Positions 1,407-10,282 of a stretch of DNA of 64,000 nt are shown piece after piece (the first letter of the stretch is position 1; every line of letters starts with the position of its first letter). The translations under genes were made by a program, and so were the position numbers. Below the pieces are notes generated by a model. That model was not told where the DNA came from and did no database searches. It worked only from the letters and a program-made list of their open reading frames with translations. Source of the DNA: Candidatus Peregrinibacteria bacterium (GTDB lineage: Bacteria > Patescibacteriota > Gracilibacteria > UBA1369 > LOWO2-01-FULL-3); the NCBI GenBank assembly GCA_026395515.1, contig JAPLYN010000003.1:124001-188000 (forward strand), given 5' to 3'.

Positions 1407-3254
1407 ATGAAGAAAAACAAAAGTAAGCTCAGTACTCACAAAAAAATTCTTGGTGGAGTGCTGGCCACAGTTTTGTCGTTTACGGTAATTGCTTCTAGTA
1501 ATGTCAGTGATTTGAATCAAAAAATTACCGTTGATAGTACGGATAGTTCTATGACCGATTCAACAAGTAGAGAAAGAAGCGGAGATACTACTTCTACCGA
1601 TACGACGAGAACAGACTCTACCCTAAGAGGTGGGGGAATGGATTTAAGTACAAGGACTGAAATGTCGAGAAAAAATACTATTAATGGCTCAGGTCTCGAT
1701 TCATCGAGAAGAGACACTTCCGTGAATGAAGAGGCTATAAAATTACGCAGAGCTCTAGAGTTGAGAAAAGAACAGGAAATGAAAGTAAGATTTAAAACTA
1801 CGGATCAAAATTCGACTAATGAACAAGATGAGGATTTTGAAGATCCTAATATCAGTGATGAGCAAGATGTAGACTCTACAGACACCATTCTTCCTGAGGG
1901 GGATAGTACCAATCTTTCAGATCCTTCAATGTCTGACCCAACAATAACTACTCCTGAAGACCAGACTACAATTGATCAATTAAAGCTTCGTGAGAGAGAG
2001 ATGAGGGCTCAAAACCTCAAGGAAAATATGGCTAAATTGAAACTCCGAGAAAGAGAATTAAAAGCTAAACAATTCAAAGATCAATTCGTTGATAATACTA
2101 CGGATTTGAATACGAAATTGGATGAAATGATTAATGCTAAATTGGATAGTTTATCTACAACTACTGATGCGGCTACTATGGTGAAAATTAAAGATGCAAT
2201 GGCTAGTCTCAAGAGTGATTTAGTTACAAAATTTACTGAGAATCAGGATAAGGTTTCTATGTTCTCCCAAACTGCTGGGGATGCTGTAACTAAACAGCAA
2301 ACTTTGTCTGCTGAGATTATTCAAAATTTAGATAAAATTGCGACAGTTAGTTCTACTTCAACAGATGTAGTAGGAAAATTGAGAACAATGTTAACAGAAA
2401 GAATTTGGCCAGTAAGATATCTATCTGAATTTAAGAATATCACTGATAAAGCCTTGTCTGCTGCAAGTGAAGGAAAAGATCCTACCGAAATTCTCAGCAA
2501 ACTTGCTGATAGAAATTCTTCAAATGATAAAGAATTAAATCGTGAGTTGAGCAGCGAAGGATTGTGGGCTTTCCCAGATGTAAATCAGGATTCTTGGTAT
2601 GCGCAATCTGCTAATGAAGCTGCGGCTCTTGGTATTGTTCAGGGAACAGAAAATGCCGATGGATTCAAAGATTTGAGACCAGAAGCAAAACTAAATTGTG
2701 CTGAAGGTATTGCCATGATGGATAAAGCTGCAGGGCTAAAACCAGACGAAAGCATATCTGCTGACGTTGCTGCACTTGCAGGAAATATCGAATGGGCTAA
2801 GCCATTCCTACAATCTATGGCAAATGTAATTGGTGTAGAAAAATTGAGAAGCGAAATTGATGCTTGCGGCGGAATTGCCGGAGCAATGAAGAGAGAAACT
2901 TTCGCTGATACTGCAATTGCCGTATATGAAAAAATGACTGGCAAAACAGTAGATGTAAATGCTTCAAATGAAATCGGTCAGTACACAGATTTCAACCAGA
3001 TGAATGAACAACAGAGAGAAAATTTTGCTAAGGCTCATGATGTTGGATTTATTACTGGTGCCGATAATGGTACTAGAGCAAATTTCAGAGGTACAGCTAT
3101 CAGAGCTGAAGCGGCTAAGATGTTGATCATTCTTCATAAGGGATTAGTGAAAGAAGGAGTTTTGAAAAATGAATTTCCTACACCACCGAATGGAAAGGTA
3201 AATGATAGAGCTAAAACAGACGTGAATGCTTTACCAACTCCAACAGGTAATTAA
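1407..3254 (+). CDS. Secreted protein with two S-layer-homology (SLH) domains
   Basis: This 615-residue protein has a Sec-type signal: a lysine-rich N-terminus, then a hydrophobic segment ending about residue 30. Residues about 40-110 are rich in Ser, Thr, Asp and Arg. Residues about 110-230 are highly charged, with two near-repeats of K-L-R-E-R-E predicted to form coiled coil. A long helical region follows to about 370. SLH-like domains start near residue 386 (F-x-D-V, W-Y, A-x-x-G-I-V-x-G) and near 522 (Y-T-D-F, A-H-D-x-G-F-I-T-G). SLH domains normally bind cell-wall polymers, so a structural or anchoring surface protein is likely. The strong promoter suggests abundance. It is monocistronic and ends in a structured 3' region. 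Confidence 0.8.
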   Translation: MKKNKSKLSTHKKILGGVLATVLSFTVIASSNVSDLNQKITVDSTDSSMTDSTSRERSGDTTSTDTTRTDSTLRGGGMDLSTRTEMSRKNTINGSGLDSSRRDTSVNEEAIKLRRALELRKEQEMKVRFKTTDQNSTNEQDEDFEDPNISDEQDVDSTDTILPEGDSTNLSDPSMSDPTITTPEDQTTIDQLKLREREMRAQNLKENMAKLKLRERELKAKQFKDQFVDNTTDLNTKLDEMINAKLDSLSTTTDAATMVKIKDAMASLKSDLVTKFTENQDKVSMFSQTAGDAVTKQQTLSAEIIQNLDKIATVSSTSTDVVGKLRTMLTERIWPVRYLSEFKNITDKALSAASEGKDPTEILSKLADRNSSNDKELNRELSSEGLWAFPDVNQDSWYAQSANEAAALGIVQGTENADGFKDLRPEAKLNCAEGIAMMDKAAGLKPDESISADVAALAGNIEWAKPFLQSMANVIGVEKLRSEIDACGGIAGAMKRETFADTAIAVYEKMTGKTVDVNASNEIGQYTDFNQMNEQQRENFAKAHDVGFITGADNGTRANFRGTAIRAEAAKMLIILHKGLVKEGVLKNEFPTPPNGKVNDRAKTDVNALPTPTGN

Positions 3255-3268
3255 ATATTAACTTTAAA

Positions 3269-3398
3269 GGGCTCCACTTCGGTGGAGCTCCCTCAAGAGG
3301 ACCGCCAGATCAAGCCTTGCATGATAAACCTTCGGTTTTCATCCAAGAGCTTGCTCTGGGGCCCTCTCGGACACTCGCTGCTGCTCGAGCCTTTTTTT
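3269..3398 (+). terminator. Structured 3' region and likely terminator of the SLH gene
   Basis: Immediately after the SLH gene lies a UUCG-capped perfect hairpin, GCTCCAC-TTCG-GTGGAGC (3271-3288). Further small hairpins follow: AACC-TTC-GGTT near 3337, GAGC/GCTC near 3350, and a GCTCGAGC block. The region ends in seven T residues (3392-3398). The first GGGCTC can also pair with the last GAGCC, closing the whole 130 nt. A composite terminator is the simplest reading; a stable structured RNA is possible. Confidence 0.5.
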
Positions 3399-3407
3399 GA
3401 GAAAAAA

Positions 3408-3435
3408 TTGACAAAAAAGAGTCTTCAGATAAAAT
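3408..3435 (+). promoter_or_regulatory. Promoter of the lysine operon
   Basis: A perfect TTGACA (3408-3413), a 16-bp spacer and TAAAAT (3430-3435). Transcription should begin near 3442, about 18 nt before the leader peptide. It follows directly on the terminator-like T run of the SLH gene. Confidence 0.8.
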
Positions 3436-3459
3436 TGAGCCCGTTAACGTAATAATTAT

Positions 3460-3510
3460 ATGGCAAGGAAAGAATTAAAGAAGACTAAGAAGATGCTCCC
3501 AGCGGGGTAA
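3460..3510 (+). CDS. 16-residue lysine-rich leader peptide
   Basis: A short frame of 17 codons encodes MARKELKKTKKMLPAG and stops with TAA. Five of 16 residues are lysine, four of them in the cluster KKTKK. Threonine and methionine, also made from aspartate, occur once each. It begins about 18 nt after a strong promoter and ends inside the segment that can pair with the terminator. Its role is probably to let ribosome speed on lysine codons decide whether the operon is read. The peptide itself probably has no function. A sigma-70 promoter plus an adjacent terminator makes a chance ORF unlikely. Confidence 0.75.
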   Translation: MARKELKKTKKMLPAG

Positions 3511-3542
3511 GTTCTTAGAATTCTGAATTTCTTAGAACCTCG

Positions 3543-3567
3543 TCCCGCAAAGAAGCGGGATTTTTTT
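3543..3567 (+). terminator. Intrinsic terminator of the lysine attenuator
   Basis: TCCCGC (3543-3548), loop AAAGAA, GCGGGA (3555-3560), then seven T (3561-3567). It lies 24 nt before the lysC start and inside its transcription unit, so it should act conditionally. Confidence 0.88.
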
Positions 3568-3591
3568 ATTTCATATCAATAACTTTAAAAA

Positions 3592-4923
3592 ATGTCTGAA
3601 GCAAAAATTGAAAACGTAGTAGCAAAATTTGGAGGGACATCAATGGGCTCTGCAAAAGCGATCGCGCAGGTAGCAGAGATAATGGGTAAGATGGACGGAG
3701 CAAAAACCGCAGTAGTATCAGCAACTTCTGGTACCACTGATAAATTAATTTTATTGGGAGAAACTGCCGCTACTGGAGGTGCGTGGCAAGAAGGCATTCA
3801 GGCTTTAGTAGAAAAACATAATGCTATCATTGCTGAATTAGGCGTGACTGTGAATTTAGAAAATTTGTGGAAAGAATTGAAAGAGTGCTGCGAAGAAGTT
3901 CAGAAAAAAGGAGAACTTCTTACTTACATGAAAGATAGAATTTCCGGATTTGGCGAAAGAATTAGCAGCAATATTTTGCCGGAAGTTTTGAAAAAAAATG
4001 GATACAAATCTGTAGCGGTGGATTCTTACGACTTGGTTTTTACAGATAATAATTTTGGGGAAGGAAATGTGGATTTCGAAAAAACTTATAAAGCAATTGA
4101 GGAAAAAGTGGTGCCACTTTTGAAGAGTGGCGTGATTCCAGTCGTAACTGGATTCATTGGCCAATCCGAAACTGGCGAATATATTACTCTCGGCCGTGGA
4201 GGAAGCGATTACAGTGGTGCGATTGTGGCCGGAGCTTTGGATTCCAGTGAATTACAAATCTGGACTGATGTGGATGGAATTTTTAATTTCGATCCAAGAA
4301 ATGAGCCAAGAGCAAAAGTTTTACCAAAACTTTCTTTCAAGGAAGCGGCAGAGTTGGCTTTCTTTGGAGCAAAAGTGTTGCATCCAAAAACTATTAAACC
4401 GGCGATTGCCAAAAATATTCCGGTAAAAATATTGAATACTTTTAATCCAAGTGCGCCAGGAACTTTGATCACAAATGAAGAAGAAGAATCTATTAAATCT
4501 GTGACTTTCAAAAAGAATATTACCATCGTAAATATCTGTTCTGCGGGTATGCTCAGTGCTCCTGGATTTATGTCTAAAATTTTCCAGATTTTCGCAAAAC
4601 AACACATAGACGTGGATGTAGTTTCTACTTCTGAGGTGAGCGTGTCAGTGACAGTAGACAATGGTGAGGCAGATAAAGTAATTGATCAATTGAGCAAATT
4701 TGCGAACGTAAGGGTGGAGAAAGGAATGGCGATTGTGTGTCTTGTTGGTGCGGGAATTATTCACGATAAATTGGCTTTGCTGGATCTTTTCACAGCGGTG
4801 CAAGAACATGATGTGAGCATGGTTTCTCAGGGTTCTTCAAAAAGAAATATTACTTTCTTGGTGAAGGAGGCGGAGGTGCAAGAAGTAGTTAAAAAAGTAT
4901 TTAATAAATTTTTTATAGACTGA
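3592..4923 (+). CDS. lysC: Aspartate kinase
   Basis: It phosphorylates aspartate to 4-phospho-aspartate, the entry step to lysine, threonine and methionine. The kinase domain has the KFGGTS motif (Lys12 onward), a Ser-Ala-Thr-Ser-Gly-Thr block, and TLGRGGSDYSG near residue 197. From about residue 300 come two ACT-type regulatory segments, including the TSEVSVSVTVD stretch and a SQGSSKRNITF block. At 443 residues it is a monofunctional aspartokinase with its own regulatory part. It is the first structural gene after the attenuator and leads the lysine operon. The start is SD-less, with an A-rich upstream (TTTAAAAA). Confidence 0.95.
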   Translation: MSEAKIENVVAKFGGTSMGSAKAIAQVAEIMGKMDGAKTAVVSATSGTTDKLILLGETAATGGAWQEGIQALVEKHNAIIAELGVTVNLENLWKELKECCEEVQKKGELLTYMKDRISGFGERISSNILPEVLKKNGYKSVAVDSYDLVFTDNNFGEGNVDFEKTYKAIEEKVVPLLKSGVIPVVTGFIGQSETGEYITLGRGGSDYSGAIVAGALDSSELQIWTDVDGIFNFDPRNEPRAKVLPKLSFKEAAELAFFGAKVLHPKTIKPAIAKNIPVKILNTFNPSAPGTLITNEEEESIKSVTFKKNITIVNICSAGMLSAPGFMSKIFQIFAKQHIDVDVVSTSEVSVSVTVDNGEADKVIDQLSKFANVRVEKGMAIVCLVGAGIIHDKLALLDLFTAVQEHDVSMVSQGSSKRNITFLVKEAEVQEVVKKVFNKFFID

Positions 4924-5048: not shown

Positions 5049-6110
5049 ATGAAAAATGTAGTGATAGTAGGAGCGACAGGTGCGGTGGGGGTGGAGATGA
5101 TTAATTGTCTCAAGGCTTTGAATTTTCCAGTAGGGAAGTTGAGACTAGTGGCGTCAGAAAAATCTCTAGGAAAAATAATTAAAACTCCATTTGGAGACGT
5201 GGCTTGCGAAGTAATTTCTGATAAAGTTTTTGAAGAGAGCGATGTGGCACTTTTCTCAGCAGGAAGCGATATCAGCAAGGAGTGGAGAGACCGTGTGGTG
5301 AAAGCTGGATGCCTGATGGTGGATAATTCTTCAGCGTTTAGATATGAAAAAGATGTGCCTTTGGTAATTCCTGGAGTAAATAGTGAAGCGGCTAAAAATA
5401 ATCCTGGTGTGATCGCAAATCCAAACTGTACGACAGCAATTGCAGCGATGGCGCTCTGGCCAATTTACAAAAAATTTGGTTTGAAGAAGGTGATTGTGAG
5501 CACTTATCAGGCGACTAGTGGAGCTGGTGCAAAAGGAATGAAAGAGTTGGTAGATCAGACTCGCGCAGTTTTTGAAGGAAATAATTTGGGGGCTAAAGGA
5601 ATTGAGGAATTGTTAGATCCGGAACATGTAAAAGTGAAGGCTGGTTCAGAAGCGGCTCCAAAGTTTTTTGTTCATCAAATTGCTTTCAATATTATTCCTC
5701 ATATCGATAAATTTCAGGATAATGGTTACACAAAAGAGGAAATGAAAGTGGCTTGGGAAACTAGGAAAATTTTTGGTGATGAAGAAATTGCGTGTTCATG
5801 TACAGCCGTGAGAATTCCAACTCTTCGTGCACACAGCGAGAGCATCGTGATCGAGACTCGTGATCCTGTAACGGTGGAGGGCGCGAGAGAAGTATTGAGC
5901 AATGCTCCTGGCGTTGATCTAGTAGACGATGTGAGCAAAAACCTCTATCCTATGCCTATAAACGCTGCTGGAAAGTTTAACGTAGAAGTGGGAAGAATTC
6001 GTCAGAGTTTGATTTTCGGAGATCATGGATTGGAATTATTTGTGAGTGGAGATCAACTTTTGAGAGGTGCGGCGTTGAATGCGGTGGAGATTGCGATGTT
6101 ATTTGTTTAG
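5049..6110 (+). CDS. asd: Aspartate-semialdehyde dehydrogenase
   Basis: It reduces aspartyl phosphate to aspartate semialdehyde with NADPH, the branch-point step after LysC. The NADP-binding loop GATGAVG lies at residues 8-14, and the catalytic cysteine is Cys127 in NPNCTT. A conserved histidine sits in the RIPTLRAHSES segment. Its length of 353 is normal. It is second in the lysine operon, separated from lysC by a large hairpin that could tune the relative mRNA levels. The start follows AATATT with no Shine-Dalgarno sequence. Confidence 0.95.
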   Translation: MKNVVIVGATGAVGVEMINCLKALNFPVGKLRLVASEKSLGKIIKTPFGDVACEVISDKVFEESDVALFSAGSDISKEWRDRVVKAGCLMVDNSSAFRYEKDVPLVIPGVNSEAAKNNPGVIANPNCTTAIAAMALWPIYKKFGLKKVIVSTYQATSGAGAKGMKELVDQTRAVFEGNNLGAKGIEELLDPEHVKVKAGSEAAPKFFVHQIAFNIIPHIDKFQDNGYTKEEMKVAWETRKIFGDEEIACSCTAVRIPTLRAHSESIVIETRDPVTVEGAREVLSNAPGVDLVDDVSKNLYPMPINAAGKFNVEVGRIRQSLIFGDHGLELFVSGDQLLRGAALNAVEIAMLFV

Positions 6111-6161: not shown

Positions 6162-6911
6162 ATGAAAATTGCATTACTAGGATTTGGTGGAATGGGAAAA
6201 GTGGTGAGGACAATTGTGCTTGAAAGAGGGCATGAAGTGCCGGTGATTGTGGATCCAAGTGCGAAAGAAGCTACAACGGCAAAACTAGATGTATCAGCGC
6301 TAAAAGGCGTCGACGTAGCGATAGATTTTTCGAATGGTGATTCAGTAATTGAAAATTTAAAAATCTGTAAAGAAGCTGGTGTTAACTTAGTGGAGGGTGC
6401 GACAGGATGGTATGAAAAATTGGATGAAATCAAAAAAGTTGTGGGCTCAAAAGATACTGGTGGCCAGATCGGATTTCTCTGGTCATCAAACTTTTCTATC
6501 GGTGTAAATATGTATTTCAAAATAGTGGAAGCGGCAGCGAAATTAGTAAATAAATTCGATGAATATGATGTATGGGGAACTGAAATTCACCATTACAACA
6601 AGGCTGATTCTCCATCTGGTACCGCAAAGACTTTGGAGAAAATTTTGCTGGAAAATATTGAAAGAAAAACTGCAGTAGTGGAAGACAAACTAGATCGCAA
6701 ACGCGAGATGAATGAGATTCATTTTGCGTCTGTGAGAGGCGGACTTGTAAACTTCGGACACACTATTGGTTTTGATTCAGCTGCAGACAGAATCACTATT
6801 ACTCATGAGGCGCGTTGTCGTGATGGATATGCGCTAGGAGCAGTGAAAGCGGCGGAGTGGATTAACGGAAAGAAGGGATACTTTGAGATGGAAGATTTTT
6901 TGAATGGATAG
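6162..6911 (+). CDS. dapB: 4-hydroxy-tetrahydrodipicolinate reductase
   Basis: It reduces the DapA product to tetrahydrodipicolinate using NAD(P)H. The nucleotide-binding glycine motif GFGGMG is at residues 7-12. The family signature is EIHHYNKADSPSGTA, with catalytic His143-His144, Lys147 and the substrate-binding PSGTA at 151-155. It has 249 residues, slightly shorter than E. coli DapB. It is third in the lysine operon, preceding dapA by 30 nt, which fits their consecutive reactions. The start is SD-less. Confidence 0.94.
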   Translation: MKIALLGFGGMGKVVRTIVLERGHEVPVIVDPSAKEATTAKLDVSALKGVDVAIDFSNGDSVIENLKICKEAGVNLVEGATGWYEKLDEIKKVVGSKDTGGQIGFLWSSNFSIGVNMYFKIVEAAAKLVNKFDEYDVWGTEIHHYNKADSPSGTAKTLEKILLENIERKTAVVEDKLDRKREMNEIHFASVRGGLVNFGHTIGFDSAADRITITHEARCRDGYALGAVKAAEWINGKKGYFEMEDFLNG

Positions 6912-6941: not shown

Positions 6942-7844
6942 ATGCCAAGAAAATATGCAGGAACATGGACCGCGATTGTGACGCCATTTGCTAAAGATGG
7001 TTCAGTAGATGAAGCTGCCATGCGCAAGATGGTGCAAAGACAAATTGCCGCTGGTGTGACAGGAGTTGTGCCGGTGGGAACAACTGGCGAATCGCCTACT
7101 ACTACGACAGAGGAGGATGCTAGAATTTTTCAAATTGTAGTGGAGGAAAGAGATAAAGCAGTGGCCTCTGGTGGACCAAGAGTAATGGTAATGGCAGGCG
7201 CAGGAAGTAATTCTACTCATGAAGCGAGCGAATATATTGGCAATGCTAAGAAGGCTGGTGTGGATTGCTGTCTTATCGTTTCACCTTATTACAACAAACC
7301 AACTCAGAAAGGTTTGAGGCTACATTATTTGGCTTTGGCTGAATTGGGATTGCCGATAATTGTTTACAATATTAAGGGCCGTACCGGCGTAAACATTGAG
7401 ACGGATACTTTGATGGAAATTGCGAAACATCCGATGATTGTGGGTGTGAAGGAAGCTAGCGGTGATATGGTTCAAATTAAAGATGTACTAGCGCGAAGAC
7501 CGGCTGATTTTACAGTACTTTCTGGAGATGATGGATTAACAATAGAAGTGATGAAGAACGGTGGAGATGGAGTGGTGTCTGTAGCGGGAAATTTAGTTCC
7601 AAAAGAATTGAGTGAAATGGTGAGATTTGCGAGTGAAGAAAATTTCGAAGAGGCAGAAAAAATTAATGTGAATTTGTCTCGTTTATTTAAAGATATTTTC
7701 GTAGAAACAAATCCGATTCCAGTAAAATATATTGCGTCAAAAATGGGCTTATGTGAGCTCTCATTCAGATTACCAATGTGTGAACCGGAAGATAAAACAA
7801 AGGAATACTTAGAGGAGACTATTAAATTCTATAAATTAATCTAA
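6942..7844 (+). CDS. dapA: 4-hydroxy-tetrahydrodipicolinate synthase
   Basis: A class I (Schiff-base) aldolase that condenses pyruvate with aspartate semialdehyde, committing carbon to lysine. GTTGES lies at residues 46-51, SPYYNKP near 114-120, and the Schiff-base lysine is Lys170 in GVKEASGD. A small variation is YNIKGRTGV where YNVPGRTGV is common. Length 300 is normal. The stop abuts the next start directly (TAAATG), so lysA is probably translated by coupling. Confidence 0.95.
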   Translation: MPRKYAGTWTAIVTPFAKDGSVDEAAMRKMVQRQIAAGVTGVVPVGTTGESPTTTTEEDARIFQIVVEERDKAVASGGPRVMVMAGAGSNSTHEASEYIGNAKKAGVDCCLIVSPYYNKPTQKGLRLHYLALAELGLPIIVYNIKGRTGVNIETDTLMEIAKHPMIVGVKEASGDMVQIKDVLARRPADFTVLSGDDGLTIEVMKNGGDGVVSVAGNLVPKELSEMVRFASEENFEEAEKINVNLSRLFKDIFVETNPIPVKYIASKMGLCELSFRLPMCEPEDKTKEYLEETIKFYKLI

Positions 7845-9077
7845 ATGAACCAGAACGTAATCTCTTATCCAAAAGAGGGTATAGCTAAAGCTGTGCAGAA
7901 ATTTGAAACTCCATTCTTTATTTATGAAGAGGCGAGACTTCGCGCAAATTGCCGAAATTTGAAAGCGGCATTTGTAAAATATTTTCCAGATTTCCAACCG
8001 ATGTTTGCAGTGAAGGCAAATAATAATCCTGTGGTTTTACAGATTATAAAGGAAGAAGGTTTTGGTTTTGATTGTTCCAGTGAGTCAGAATGCTGGATTG
8101 CTAAAAAACTGGGCGCAAACGGAACATACACTGGAAATTATACGCCTTCAAAAACTCTTAAATTCGCGAAAGATTGTGGAATGCTTTTGAACTTGGATGA
8201 TATTAGTAATGTGGCTATGCTTGCAGAAATAGGCGTTCCAGAAACTATTTCATTTAGAATAAATCCTGGAATCGGTAAAGGCGGAATGGAGAGTGTGATC
8301 ACTGCTGGACCAGATGCAAAATTTGGTGTGCCTTTCGAAAAAGCTGGAGCGGCTTATCAATTAGCGAAAGACGCTGGAGTGAGACATTTTGGTATTCATA
8401 TGATGACTGGAAGTAATGTTTTGGATGAAGAATACTTTGGAAAAACAGTAGAAAAATTATTGGAAATTGTGGCGATGGTGAAAAATCAAAGTGGAGTAGA
8501 AATTGAATTCATGAATATTGGTGGGGGATTTGGTGTGCCATACAGACCAGAAGAAAAAAGTTTGGATTTGGAAAAAGTGGCTAAGTTAATTAAAGAAACT
8601 TTTGATAAACAATGTGCAAAATTGGGAATCAAAGCTCCAAGACTTGTAGCTGAGCCTGGAAGATTTATTGCAGCAGATATGGGCTTTCTGATTGGGAAAG
8701 TAGTAGTTATTAAAGAAGGTTATAAAAAATTTATTGGAATTGATGCAGCAAGTAATGACATGCCGAGACCATCAATTTATGGAGCTTATCACCATGTGTC
8801 AGTGCTTGGTAAAGATGATGGCAAAAAAGAAATTGTTTCTGTGGTGGGAAGCATTTGTGAAAATAATGATCAATTTGCCAAAGACAGAGAATTACCAATT
8901 TGTGAGATCGGAGATACGCTAGTCATTCACAATTGTGGTGGTCATGCTTTTGCAATGGGTCATCATTACAATGGAAAGCTCTTACATGCGGAATATTTAT
9001 TGCAGGAAAATGGCGAATTGCGTATGATCCGCCGAGCAGAAACTTTTGAAGATTTATATAAAACAACTGAAGTATGA
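7845..9077 (+). CDS. lysA: Diaminopimelate decarboxylase
   Basis: A PLP-dependent, alanine-racemase-fold enzyme that decarboxylates meso-diaminopimelate to lysine. The PLP lysine is Lys57 in FAVKANNNP. Other signatures are the IGGGFGVPY glycine loop near residue 226, the EPGRF segment, and the CGGHAF / HYNG C-terminal block. Length 410 is typical. It starts immediately after dapA and overlaps the aminotransferase by ATGA. Ornithine or carboxynorspermidine decarboxylases share the fold, but the operon supports LysA. Confidence 0.9.
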   Translation: MNQNVISYPKEGIAKAVQKFETPFFIYEEARLRANCRNLKAAFVKYFPDFQPMFAVKANNNPVVLQIIKEEGFGFDCSSESECWIAKKLGANGTYTGNYTPSKTLKFAKDCGMLLNLDDISNVAMLAEIGVPETISFRINPGIGKGGMESVITAGPDAKFGVPFEKAGAAYQLAKDAGVRHFGIHMMTGSNVLDEEYFGKTVEKLLEIVAMVKNQSGVEIEFMNIGGGFGVPYRPEEKSLDLEKVAKLIKETFDKQCAKLGIKAPRLVAEPGRFIAADMGFLIGKVVVIKEGYKKFIGIDAASNDMPRPSIYGAYHHVSVLGKDDGKKEIVSVVGSICENNDQFAKDRELPICEIGDTLVIHNCGGHAFAMGHHYNGKLLHAEYLLQENGELRMIRRAETFEDLYKTTEV

Positions 9078-10282
9078 AAATAGAGCCATCAAAACGTTTA
9101 CAGAGTTTACCGGCATATGCCTTTAAAGAAATTAATGACAAAGTTGCAGCATTGCGTGCAAGCGGCGTGAAGGCCATAGATTTCGGTGTGGGCGATCCAT
9201 CCGAGCCAACTCCCGACTTTGTGGTAAAGGCTCTCGTAGAGGCTGCAAACAAGCATGTGCTCACAGGATATCCGAGCTATGTGGGACTAAAAGAGTTCCG
9301 TGTGGCTGCTGCAGATTATATGAAAAGAAGATTTGGTGTGACTCTCGATCCTGAAAAAGAAATTTCTTCAAATATTGGTTCGAAGGAAGCGATATTTAAT
9401 TTTTCTGAAGCTTTTGTAGATCCAGGCGATGTGGTGATTTGTCCTTCCCCAGGATATCCGCCGATGAAGACTGGAACTTTCTTCGCTGAAGGAACTCCTT
9501 TTTACGCACCTTTGCTAAAAGAAAATAATTTCCTGATTGATTATAAAGCTATTCCGGAAGACATTGCCCAGAAGGCGCAGATCATTTGGACTAATTATCC
9601 AAATTCTCCAACGGGTGCCGTGGCTGACAAAAATTATTACAAAGGACTAATTGAATGGGCTAGAAAATATGACATCGTGATTGCGGCGGATGAAGGTTGT
9701 TATATTGATATTTTTTTTGATGAGGCTCCAATTTCTATTTTACAAGCGGCGGATGAATTAGGGCTTGGTCGTGAGGGAATTATTGCTTTCTACTCTTTGA
9801 GCAAACGTAATAATATGACTGGTTATCGCGTGGGATTTGTGGCGGGAGATGAGGGAGTGGTGAACGTTTATAAACTTTTGAAAACTAATATCGATTCCGG
9901 TACGCCAAATATTATTCAGGAGGCGGCAATTAAAGCTTTAGAAAATGATGTACATGTCGGACAAATGAGAGAACTTTATAAAGAGAAAGCGAAGATTTTG
10001 ATTAATGGTTTGCGCGCAATTGGCCTCGAAGCTGAAATGCCAAAAGCGACTTTCTATATCTGGCAAAAAGTTCCTGCGGGAATGACAGACGTAGAATTTG
10101 CGAAAAAATTACTAGATCCTGAGATTGGAATTGTAGTAACTCCTGGAAGTTTAATCTCTGATGAATGTGATTACAATGACCAGAAAATCAATCCTGGAGC
10201 AGGCTATGTCAGATTCGCATTGATGCCAACTCTCGAAGAAATCAATGAGGCTGTGGTTAAACTTGCTAAAATCAATATTTAG
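9074..10282 (+). CDS. dapL: Class I/II aminotransferase, probably LL-diaminopimelate aminotransferase
   Basis: A fold-type I PLP enzyme of 402 residues. The PLP site is SLSKRNNMTGYRVG with Lys244. NYPNSPTGA (Asn177), Asp206 and Tyr210 complete the cofactor pocket. It begins with an ATGA overlap on lysA, so the two are coupled. In this operon it should make the amino group of diaminopimelate. The options are DapL, acting directly on tetrahydrodipicolinate, or DapC, acting on the succinylated or acetylated intermediate. No dapD, dapE or dapF lies in the window, which favours DapL without proving it. An epimerase elsewhere would still be required. Confidence 0.75.
   Translation: MKIEPSKRLQSLPAYAFKEINDKVAALRASGVKAIDFGVGDPSEPTPDFVVKALVEAANKHVLTGYPSYVGLKEFRVAAADYMKRRFGVTLDPEKEISSNIGSKEAIFNFSEAFVDPGDVVICPSPGYPPMKTGTFFAEGTPFYAPLLKENNFLIDYKAIPEDIAQKAQIIWTNYPNSPTGAVADKNYYKGLIEWARKYDIVIAADEGCYIDIFFDEAPISILQAADELGLGREGIIAFYSLSKRNNMTGYRVGFVAGDEGVVNVYKLLKTNIDSGTPNIIQEAAIKALENDVHVGQMRELYKEKAKILINGLRAIGLEAEMPKATFYIWQKVPAGMTDVEFAKKLLDPEIGIVVTPGSLISDECDYNDQKINPGAGYVRFALMPTLEEINEAVVKLAKINI

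What the first reader, a model, noticed from the sequence alone, without database searches (positions are those of the whole stretch)
3408..3591. Lysine leader-peptide attenuator controlling the lysine operon
Seen directly: promoter, a 16-codon ORF with five lysines (four in KKTKK), an intrinsic terminator 24 nt before lysC, and a GCGGGGT segment (3502-3508) overlapping the ORF end that can pair with GTCCCGC of the terminator 5' arm. A TCCC protector (3497-3500) completes the four-segment scheme of trp/his attenuators. The lysine codons sit where a stalled ribosome frees the antiterminator and a ribosome at the stop blocks it. Known lysC control is mostly by the lysine riboswitch; I know of no well-described lysine leader-peptide attenuator of this layout, though I cannot search.
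Basis: partly seen in the sequence, partly recalled or inferred. Interest (0 to 1): 0.9.

Follow-up and report, generated by a model that had tools for sequence, protein, structure and literature searches.

The report
Lysine leader-peptide attenuator before lysC
In a group of tiny, mostly uncultured bacteria (Peregrinibacteria), the lysine-making genes appear to be switched on by a ribosome that stalls on lysine codons in a 16-codon leader, a textbook type of switch that I found described for other amino acids but not clearly for lysine.

Summary
Window 3408-3591 holds a promoter, a 16-codon ORF (MARKELKKTKKMLPAG, 3460-3510), an antiterminator strand overlapping its stop, an intrinsic terminator, and then lysC-asd-dapB-dapA-lysA-aminotransferase.

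Fourteen lysC loci carry a Lys-rich leader ORF, usually KKxKK: the window, 12 more genomes of its order and one of another order. Each leader is placed so that a ribosome held on the lysines frees the antiterminator, while one at the stop codon blocks it. The three competing strands change together (88 of 92 shared positions). Lys is concentrated in the control window (46/84 codons against 19/175 elsewhere). The lysine riboswitch is absent from all 89 genomes searched.

Aspartokinase-homoserine dehydrogenase genes in the class carry Thr/Ile leaders instead. The same genome has Ile, Leu, Met and possibly Arg leaders before matching genes, and the Met leader (MMMxMMM) recurs in about ten genomes.

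The mechanism class is known (trp/his/thr attenuation). Lysine specificity and its use in this candidate phylum look new. I found no published lysine attenuator, but the library is incomplete. Nothing is tested in vivo, and in this locus read-through must be kinetic: at equilibrium the terminator wins.

The parts
3409..3436 (+). sigma-70-like promoter, TTGACA - 16 bp - TAAAAT; approximate coordinates
   Evidence: same promoter in L003, L005, L007 and L013 at a similar position relative to the leader ORF, and retained in L004, which lost the leader
3460..3510 (+). leader peptide ORF MARKELKKTKKMLPAG*, Lys codons AAA, AAG, AAG, AAG, AAG; no Shine-Dalgarno
   Evidence: Lys-rich leader ORFs at 14 loci; the organism as a whole lacks SD (22/770 ORFs, control offset 64/770)
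3478..3492 (+). regulatory codons AAG AAG ACT AAG AAG (KKTKK), the control region for ribosome stalling
   Evidence: segment 3 sequestered (0.86-0.87) with Lys 7-11 in the A site, free (0.02) at the stop; for enrichment
3494..3509 (+). segment 1:2 protector hairpin TGCTCC / GGGGTA, extended by CTAAGAA (Lys-Thr codons) / TTCTTAG
   Evidence: MFE; not conserved in all relatives
3502..3508 (+). segment 2, antiterminator 5' strand GCGGGGT, overlapping the stop codon
3511..3538 (+). AT-rich inner stem of the antiterminator (GTTCT.AGAA ... TTCT.AGAAC)
   Evidence: structure, -19.0 kcal/mol for the antiterminator
3542..3548 (+). segment 3, GTCCCGC: pairs with segment 2 (antiterminator) or segment 4 (terminator)
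3555..3567 (+). segment 4 GCGGGAT plus T-run: intrinsic terminator 3' strand, -12.4 kcal/mol
3592..4923 (+). lysC, monofunctional aspartokinase (lysine-sensitive AK III type)
   Evidence: best NCBIfam model lysine-sensitive aspartokinase 3, below its cut-off; asp_kinases over cut-off
5049..6110 (+). asd, aspartate-semialdehyde dehydrogenase
6162..6911 (+). dapB
6942..7844 (+). dapA
7845..9077 (+). lysA, diaminopimelate decarboxylase
9074..10282 (+). LL-diaminopimelate aminotransferase-like (dapL), last gene of the lysine operon
   Evidence: best hit LL-DAP aminotransferase, below the curated cut-off

Best explanation
It is a ribosome-mediated transcription attenuator that senses charged lysyl-tRNA and controls the lysine operon. 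Transcription starts just upstream of a 16-codon leader ORF. When lysyl-tRNA is plentiful, the ribosome runs to the stop codon, covers GCGGGG (segment 2), and leaves segment 3 (TCCCGC) free to pair with segment 4, so RNA polymerase terminates before lysC. When lysyl-tRNA is short, the ribosome stalls on KKTKK, segment 2 is exposed and pairs with segment 3 before segment 4 is made, so transcription continues into lysC-asd-dapB-dapA-lysA-dapL. With no ribosome, the 1:2 hairpin in this species favours termination. Shown here: the anatomy, its conservation, the concerted changes of three strands, the placement of the Lys codons, and the folding outcomes under a ribosome mask. Inferred: translation of the ORF, stalling at Lys codons, and the effect on read-through.
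For: Lys-rich leader ORFs at 14 lysC loci, most diverged in sequence: KKTKK, KKIKK, KKGKK, KKSKK, KKKAKK, KKLKK, KKAKK, KKSSKK, KKK, KKNKKAKK. Stop-to-terminator spacing is 25-41 nt, mostly 25-31, as in the Thr/Ile/Leu/Met/Arg leaders. Segments 2, 3 and 4 change together: GCG, CGC, ATA and TAT triples, seg2 = seg4 at 88 of 92 shared positions. Masked folding: segment 3 sequestered at Lys codons and released at the stop, clearly in most of the 15 loci, weakly in L013 (0.54 vs 0.29). Lys 46/84 codons in the control window against 19/175 outside; shuffles p = 2e-21 combined. Leaders prefer AAG (53:13) against 28% AAG genome-wide. Internal control: G034 has a Lys leader on its monofunctional AK (L014) and a Thr/Ile leader on its AK-homoserine dehydrogenase (L114); L018, L140, L141 and the own homoserine dehydrogenase gene also have Thr/Ile leaders. 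Same-genome Leu, Ile and Met leaders match their genes. Lysine riboswitch 0 of 89 genomes with working positive controls; no Rfam hit in the window or the leader loci.
Against: No experiment. At equilibrium the window's terminator still wins with a stalled ribosome (0.78-0.98), and largely so in L003, L007, L013 and L118, so the switch must be kinetic. L015 has a terminator and antiterminator but only scattered Lys codons (p = 0.12). L004, same genus, kept the promoter but lost the leader and terminator. L113 and most aspartokinases of other orders have no leader. No Shine-Dalgarno precedes the ORF, although this organism uses none. Relatives are not independent, so combined p-values are optimistic. 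The ribosome footprint (A site +9 or +12) is assumed.
Confidence: 0.9

Rival explanations
1. An untranslated lysine-binding riboswitch (new class), or another ligand-binding leader, with the ORF a coincidence.
For: lysC is riboswitch-controlled in many bacteria; the leader is structured (z = -3.8).
Against: No Rfam match, RF00168 absent. The leader is about 110 nt with no conserved sequence outside the codons and the antiterminator repeats. Conservation is of an in-frame amino-acid pattern, and paralogous leaders swap Lys for Thr/Ile, Leu or Met codons with the gene.
Confidence: 0.03
2. A leader-peptide attenuator that responds to general ribosome slowing on a polybasic stretch, or to overall translation rate, rather than specifically to lysyl-tRNA.
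For: Lys-rich nascent chains can slow ribosomes (general knowledge); a leader cannot by sequence alone prove its signal.
Against: The same architecture carries non-basic Thr, Ile, Leu and Met runs matched to pathway. Lys replaces them only before lysine-pathway aspartokinases.
Confidence: 0.05
3. The hairpin is an ordinary terminator of the upstream gene and the ORF is chance.
For: A surface-protein-like gene ends at 3254, upstream on the same strand.
Against: A conserved promoter lies between that gene and the leader, and upstream sequences differ among relatives. Chance ORF: combined p = 2e-21.
Confidence: 0.02

Closest known systems
thrL attenuator of the E. coli thrABC operon (and trpL, hisL, leuL, ilvL, pheL)
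   Same: Short ORF with a run of cognate codons, stop overlapping the antiterminator strand, 2:3 against 3:4 hairpins, control of an aspartate-family operon.
   Different: Regulatory codons are Lys; different phylum; no Shine-Dalgarno; leader ORF starts very near the predicted +1; the 1:2 protector is variable.
Lysine riboswitch (L-box, RF00168)
   Same: Controls lysC or the lysine operon by premature termination.
   Different: RF00168 not detected in any of 89 genomes of the order; here the sensor would be a translating ribosome.
Sinorhizobium meliloti SEP5 sORF (PMC10117765)
   Same: Possible leader peptide with clustered Thr (six) and Lys (three) codons in the 5'-UTR of a gene annotated as aspartate dehydrogenase.
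   Different: Only suggested to be a leader peptide; mixed codons, and no terminator or antiterminator described in the passages read.
S. meliloti trpL leaderless attenuator ORF (rnTrpL, PMC10117765)
   Same: Attenuator ORF translated from a leaderless transcript, as predicted for L010 and L017.
   Different: Trp specificity; alphaproteobacterium.

Membership tests
Ribosome-mediated (leader-peptide) transcription attenuator | Short translatable ORF between promoter and structural gene | tested here: met
   promoter, then 16-codon ORF 24 nt after the -10; translation itself not shown
Ribosome-mediated (leader-peptide) transcription attenuator | Regulatory codons cognate to the product of the operon, located in the control region | tested here: met
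   Lys codons before a lysine operon, enriched in the control window across relatives
Ribosome-mediated (leader-peptide) transcription attenuator | Intrinsic terminator before the first gene | tested here: met
   GTCCCGC-loop-GCGGGAT-T run; conserved at all 15 leader loci
Ribosome-mediated (leader-peptide) transcription attenuator | Mutually exclusive antiterminator conserved with compensatory change | tested here: met
   shuffle p = 3.7e-13 combined; 88 of 92 concordant positions (segment 2 was chosen as the best match)
Ribosome-mediated (leader-peptide) transcription attenuator | Stall position switches terminator and antiterminator | tested here: met
   (kinetic, transcript to the end of the terminator loop): 0.87 at Lys against 0.02 at the stop; equilibrium version fails for this locus
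Ribosome-mediated (leader-peptide) transcription attenuator | Read-through rises when the cognate charged tRNA is limiting | not testable with these tools
   needs a reporter or RNA measurement
Lysine riboswitch RF00168 | Match to the covariance model upstream of lysC | tested here: not met
   positive controls detected in four known genomes
T-box RF00230 (lysine-specific) | T-box upstream of lysC | tested here: not met
   none in the own genome nor in the lysC loci; sub-threshold T-boxes exist elsewhere in 19 of 89 genomes

The most novel reading that the evidence does not exclude
A lineage of candidate-phylum bacteria without Shine-Dalgarno signals runs much of its aspartate-family and branched-chain amino-acid synthesis by ribosome-mediated attenuation, including the first lysine-sensing and the first methionine-sensing (MMMxMMM) leader peptides, with some leader ORFs apparently leaderless.
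Probability: 0.7. Interest if true: 0.75.

Novelty: new variant of a known kind. Interest (0 to 1): 0.63.

Why it matters
Lysine biosynthesis is known to be controlled by a riboswitch, and lysine did not appear among the leader-peptide specificities in the reviews and surveys I could read. A clade-wide Lys leader, with parallel Thr, Ile, Leu and Met leaders in the same genomes, widens the range of this mechanism. It gives rare, testable predictions of gene regulation in uncultured Patescibacteria: coupled transcription and translation, initiation without Shine-Dalgarno, and charged tRNA as the sensed signal. It also lets one read from the leader which amino acid each aspartokinase serves.

Tried and rejected
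Lysine riboswitch and T-box were sought and not found for this gene. Equilibrium folding with a masked ribosome explains several relatives but not the window locus; a kinetic fold truncated before segment 4 does. The protector TCCC as a conserved fourth segment was rejected, being variable among relatives. The relaxed genome scan gave many chance K-, L- or S-rich ORFs (gene tails, a histone-like protein, a Leu-rich frame before lysS), so only candidates with antiterminator pairing or pathway fit were kept. Literature phrase searches for lysine or methionine leader attenuators found none, but subscription papers, including wide-scale attenuator surveys by other groups, are not in the library. 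L216 (another class, GTG-start ORF with KSKK and a terminator) looked similar, but I could not define its antiterminator.

Full report
WHAT IS THERE. The window lies at G000:C4:124001-188000 of a 1.30-Mb genome in six contigs. Its nearest named relatives are Peregrinibacteria/Peribacteria MAGs. Upstream of lysC I confirm a promoter (TTGACA-16-TAAAAT), a 16-codon ORF MARKELKKTKKMLPAG at 3460-3510, GCGGGGT at 3502-3508 overlapping the stop, and an intrinsic terminator GTCCCGC/GCGGGAT plus T-run at 3542-3567. The operon is lysC, asd, dapB, dapA, lysA and an LL-DAP aminotransferase-like gene, the aspartate-to-lysine route by the aminotransferase variant.

CONSERVATION. Upstream regions of lysC were taken from relatives of the order, the class and the phylum. 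Fourteen loci, the window included, carry a Lys-rich leader ORF followed at 25-41 nt by an intrinsic terminator: MERKELKKTKKMLPAE, MIRKEFKKTKKMLPAG, MHMDFSRTTKKIKKPCSWRS, MMMQASVTKKGKKTKLSAE, MHFQIVDKKSKKLIS, MFHSVDKKKAKKLYLLAE, MINIVSENKKLKKIQF, MNFIVNTKKAKKFISKVE, MQIFLSLSKKSSKKTTLRLERANSR, MNYCFQ...LDVKKPGKVR, MNIILAVIFGAKKKIAPTRQ, MNLPSQLKKNKKAKKTLKKGRFDA and, in another order, MHVVSQIKKAKKSTS. A fifteenth locus, L015, has the hairpins but only scattered Lys and Asn codons.

CO-VARIATION. In each locus the strand near the stop (segment 2) repeats the terminator 3' strand (segment 4), both complementary to segment 3. Over 92 shared positions segments 2 and 4 carry the same base 88 times while the triples range over G-C-G, C-G-C, A-T-A and T-A-T. 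L013 contributes no shared positions by that automatic search. Segment 2 was chosen as the best match, so significance was taken from shuffles of the stop region: combined p = 3.7e-13, or 1.8e-11 without L003 and L015.

PLACEMENT OF LYS CODONS. Using the position of segment 2 to define the last codon at which a stalled ribosome leaves it free, the six codons up to that point hold 46 Lys of 84, against 19 of 175 elsewhere (p = 2e-13). Shuffled leaders rarely give a suitable ORF with as many Lys codons (combined p = 2e-21; 4e-18 without same-genus copies). Related sequences make these optimistic.

SWITCHING. With the transcript folded to the end of the terminator loop and the ribosome masking RNA to A site +9, segment 3 is sequestered at 0.86-0.87 when Lys 7-11 of the window leader are in the A site and at 0.02 when the ribosome is at the stop. 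Most Lys leaders behave the same way with the fall just after the Lys codons; L013 is weak (0.54 to 0.29). At full equilibrium this holds for L005, L006, L009, L010, L014, L016, L017 and L112, but in the window the terminator stays at 0.78 or more, so the decision there must be kinetic. The protector (1:2) is strong in the window (free-RNA termination 0.98) but absent in L017 (0.00), so it is not a defining element.

CODON CHOICE AND INITIATION. Leader Lys codons are 53 AAG to 13 AAA, while the own genome uses AAG for 28% of Lys and has one tRNA-Lys each for TTT and CTT. The background was computed for the own genome only. Elf and Ehrenberg (PMC1183508) argue that a particular synonymous regulatory codon is needed for sensitivity; pairing of AAG with CTT in the 1:2 hairpin is another possible reason. 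No Shine-Dalgarno precedes the ORF, but only 22 of 770 ORFs of 200 or more codons have one, fewer than at a control offset (64), so this organism does not seem to use it. In L010 and L017 the ORF starts 7 nt after the -10, consistent with leaderless translation.

INTERNAL CONTROLS. Aspartokinase-homoserine dehydrogenase genes of the same class carry Thr/Ile leaders: MSTIQSTTTIITTTTTGSLMR (L141), MFMSRLVTITTTTITTITS (L018), MNQKSPLKVTIIISTTTSI (L114); an aspartokinase in L140 carries MKFVTMITTMTKITK. G034 has both kinds, Lys on the monofunctional gene and Thr/Ile on the bifunctional one. In the own genome the stricter scan recovered Thr, Ile, Lys, Leu and Met leaders before homoserine dehydrogenase, a threonine synthase/deaminase-like gene, lysC, leuC and homocysteine methyltransferase, plus a leader-like structure before rplJ that is probably not of this kind. 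A weaker Arg leader lies before an argG-like gene.

ALTERNATIVES. The lysine riboswitch is absent in all 89 genomes of the order while the control genomes ring. T-boxes occur below the cut-off in 19 of 89 genomes but not in this one nor at the lysC loci. G003, same genus, kept the promoter but lost leader and terminator (L004), as expected of a dispensable regulatory insert.

NOVELTY. Ribosome-mediated attenuation is a known kind. Listed specificities in the papers read are trp, his, leu, thr, ilv and phe, with cys, leuS and trpS in Actinobacteria, where lysine operons showed none. The nearest precedent found is a S. meliloti ORF with Thr and Lys codons, proposed only as a possible leader. I found no lysine or methionine leader attenuator, in a library that lacks most subscription journals. 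Verdict: a new variant of a known kind, very likely real, awaiting a lysine-limitation experiment.

Noticed in passing
G000:C6:525177 (minus strand, outside the window); relatives L223-L233: Methionine-rich leader ORF (MMMxMMM motif, e.g. MYQSTQMMMAMMMRTMRRLMCCM) with an intrinsic terminator, conserved in about ten genomes upstream of a homocysteine S-methyltransferase. Looks like a methionine leader-peptide attenuator; possibly more unusual than the lysine one.
   Followed up: partly
G000:C2:61098 (+); relatives L018, L114, L140, L141: Thr/Ile leader (MNAAKIIITTTTTTTIM) before homoserine dehydrogenase. In the own genome the fused aspartokinase domain is truncated to its C-terminal part (Pfam AA_kinase 167-234) while the ACT and dehydrogenase domains are kept.
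   Followed up: partly
G000:C4:76894 (minus): Ile/Leu/Val leader MKKLALSLLIIVIIIL before a PLP enzyme (threonine synthase/deaminase type) fused to a LeuA allosteric domain (PF08502): an odd fusion, probably an isoleucine-controlled threonine deaminase.
   Followed up: partly
G000:C6:447346 (minus): Leu leader MKNRIITNDVQNLGLLLLGRLILR with a very strong antiterminator before a leuC-like aconitase-family gene.
   Followed up: partly
G000:C2:56501 (+): Possible Arg leader MIKLTSTTSVVRRSRLRQKLR with a terminator before an argininosuccinate-synthase-like gene; antiterminator weaker (p = 0.17).
   Followed up: partly
whole genome G000: Shine-Dalgarno-like sequences are depleted upstream of genes (22/770 against 64/770 at a control offset); the organism appears not to use them.
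   Followed up: partly
L004 (G003), upstream of lysC: Same-genus relative kept the promoter but lost leader ORF, antiterminator and terminator stem: a natural deletion, or an assembly fault.
   Followed up: no
L220-L222 and other places: T-box-like elements below Rfam's cut-off in 19 of 89 genomes of the order; targets not examined.
   Followed up: no
L216, upstream of aspartokinase (another family of the phylum): GTG-start ORF with K-S-K-K and a downstream terminator, possibly a more distant lysine leader; antiterminator not defined.
   Followed up: no
window 3265-3400: Hairpin-rich stretch (GGGCTCCACTTCGGTGGAGCTCCC and GAG-rich repeats) between a surface-protein-like gene and the lysC promoter; not examined.
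   Followed up: no
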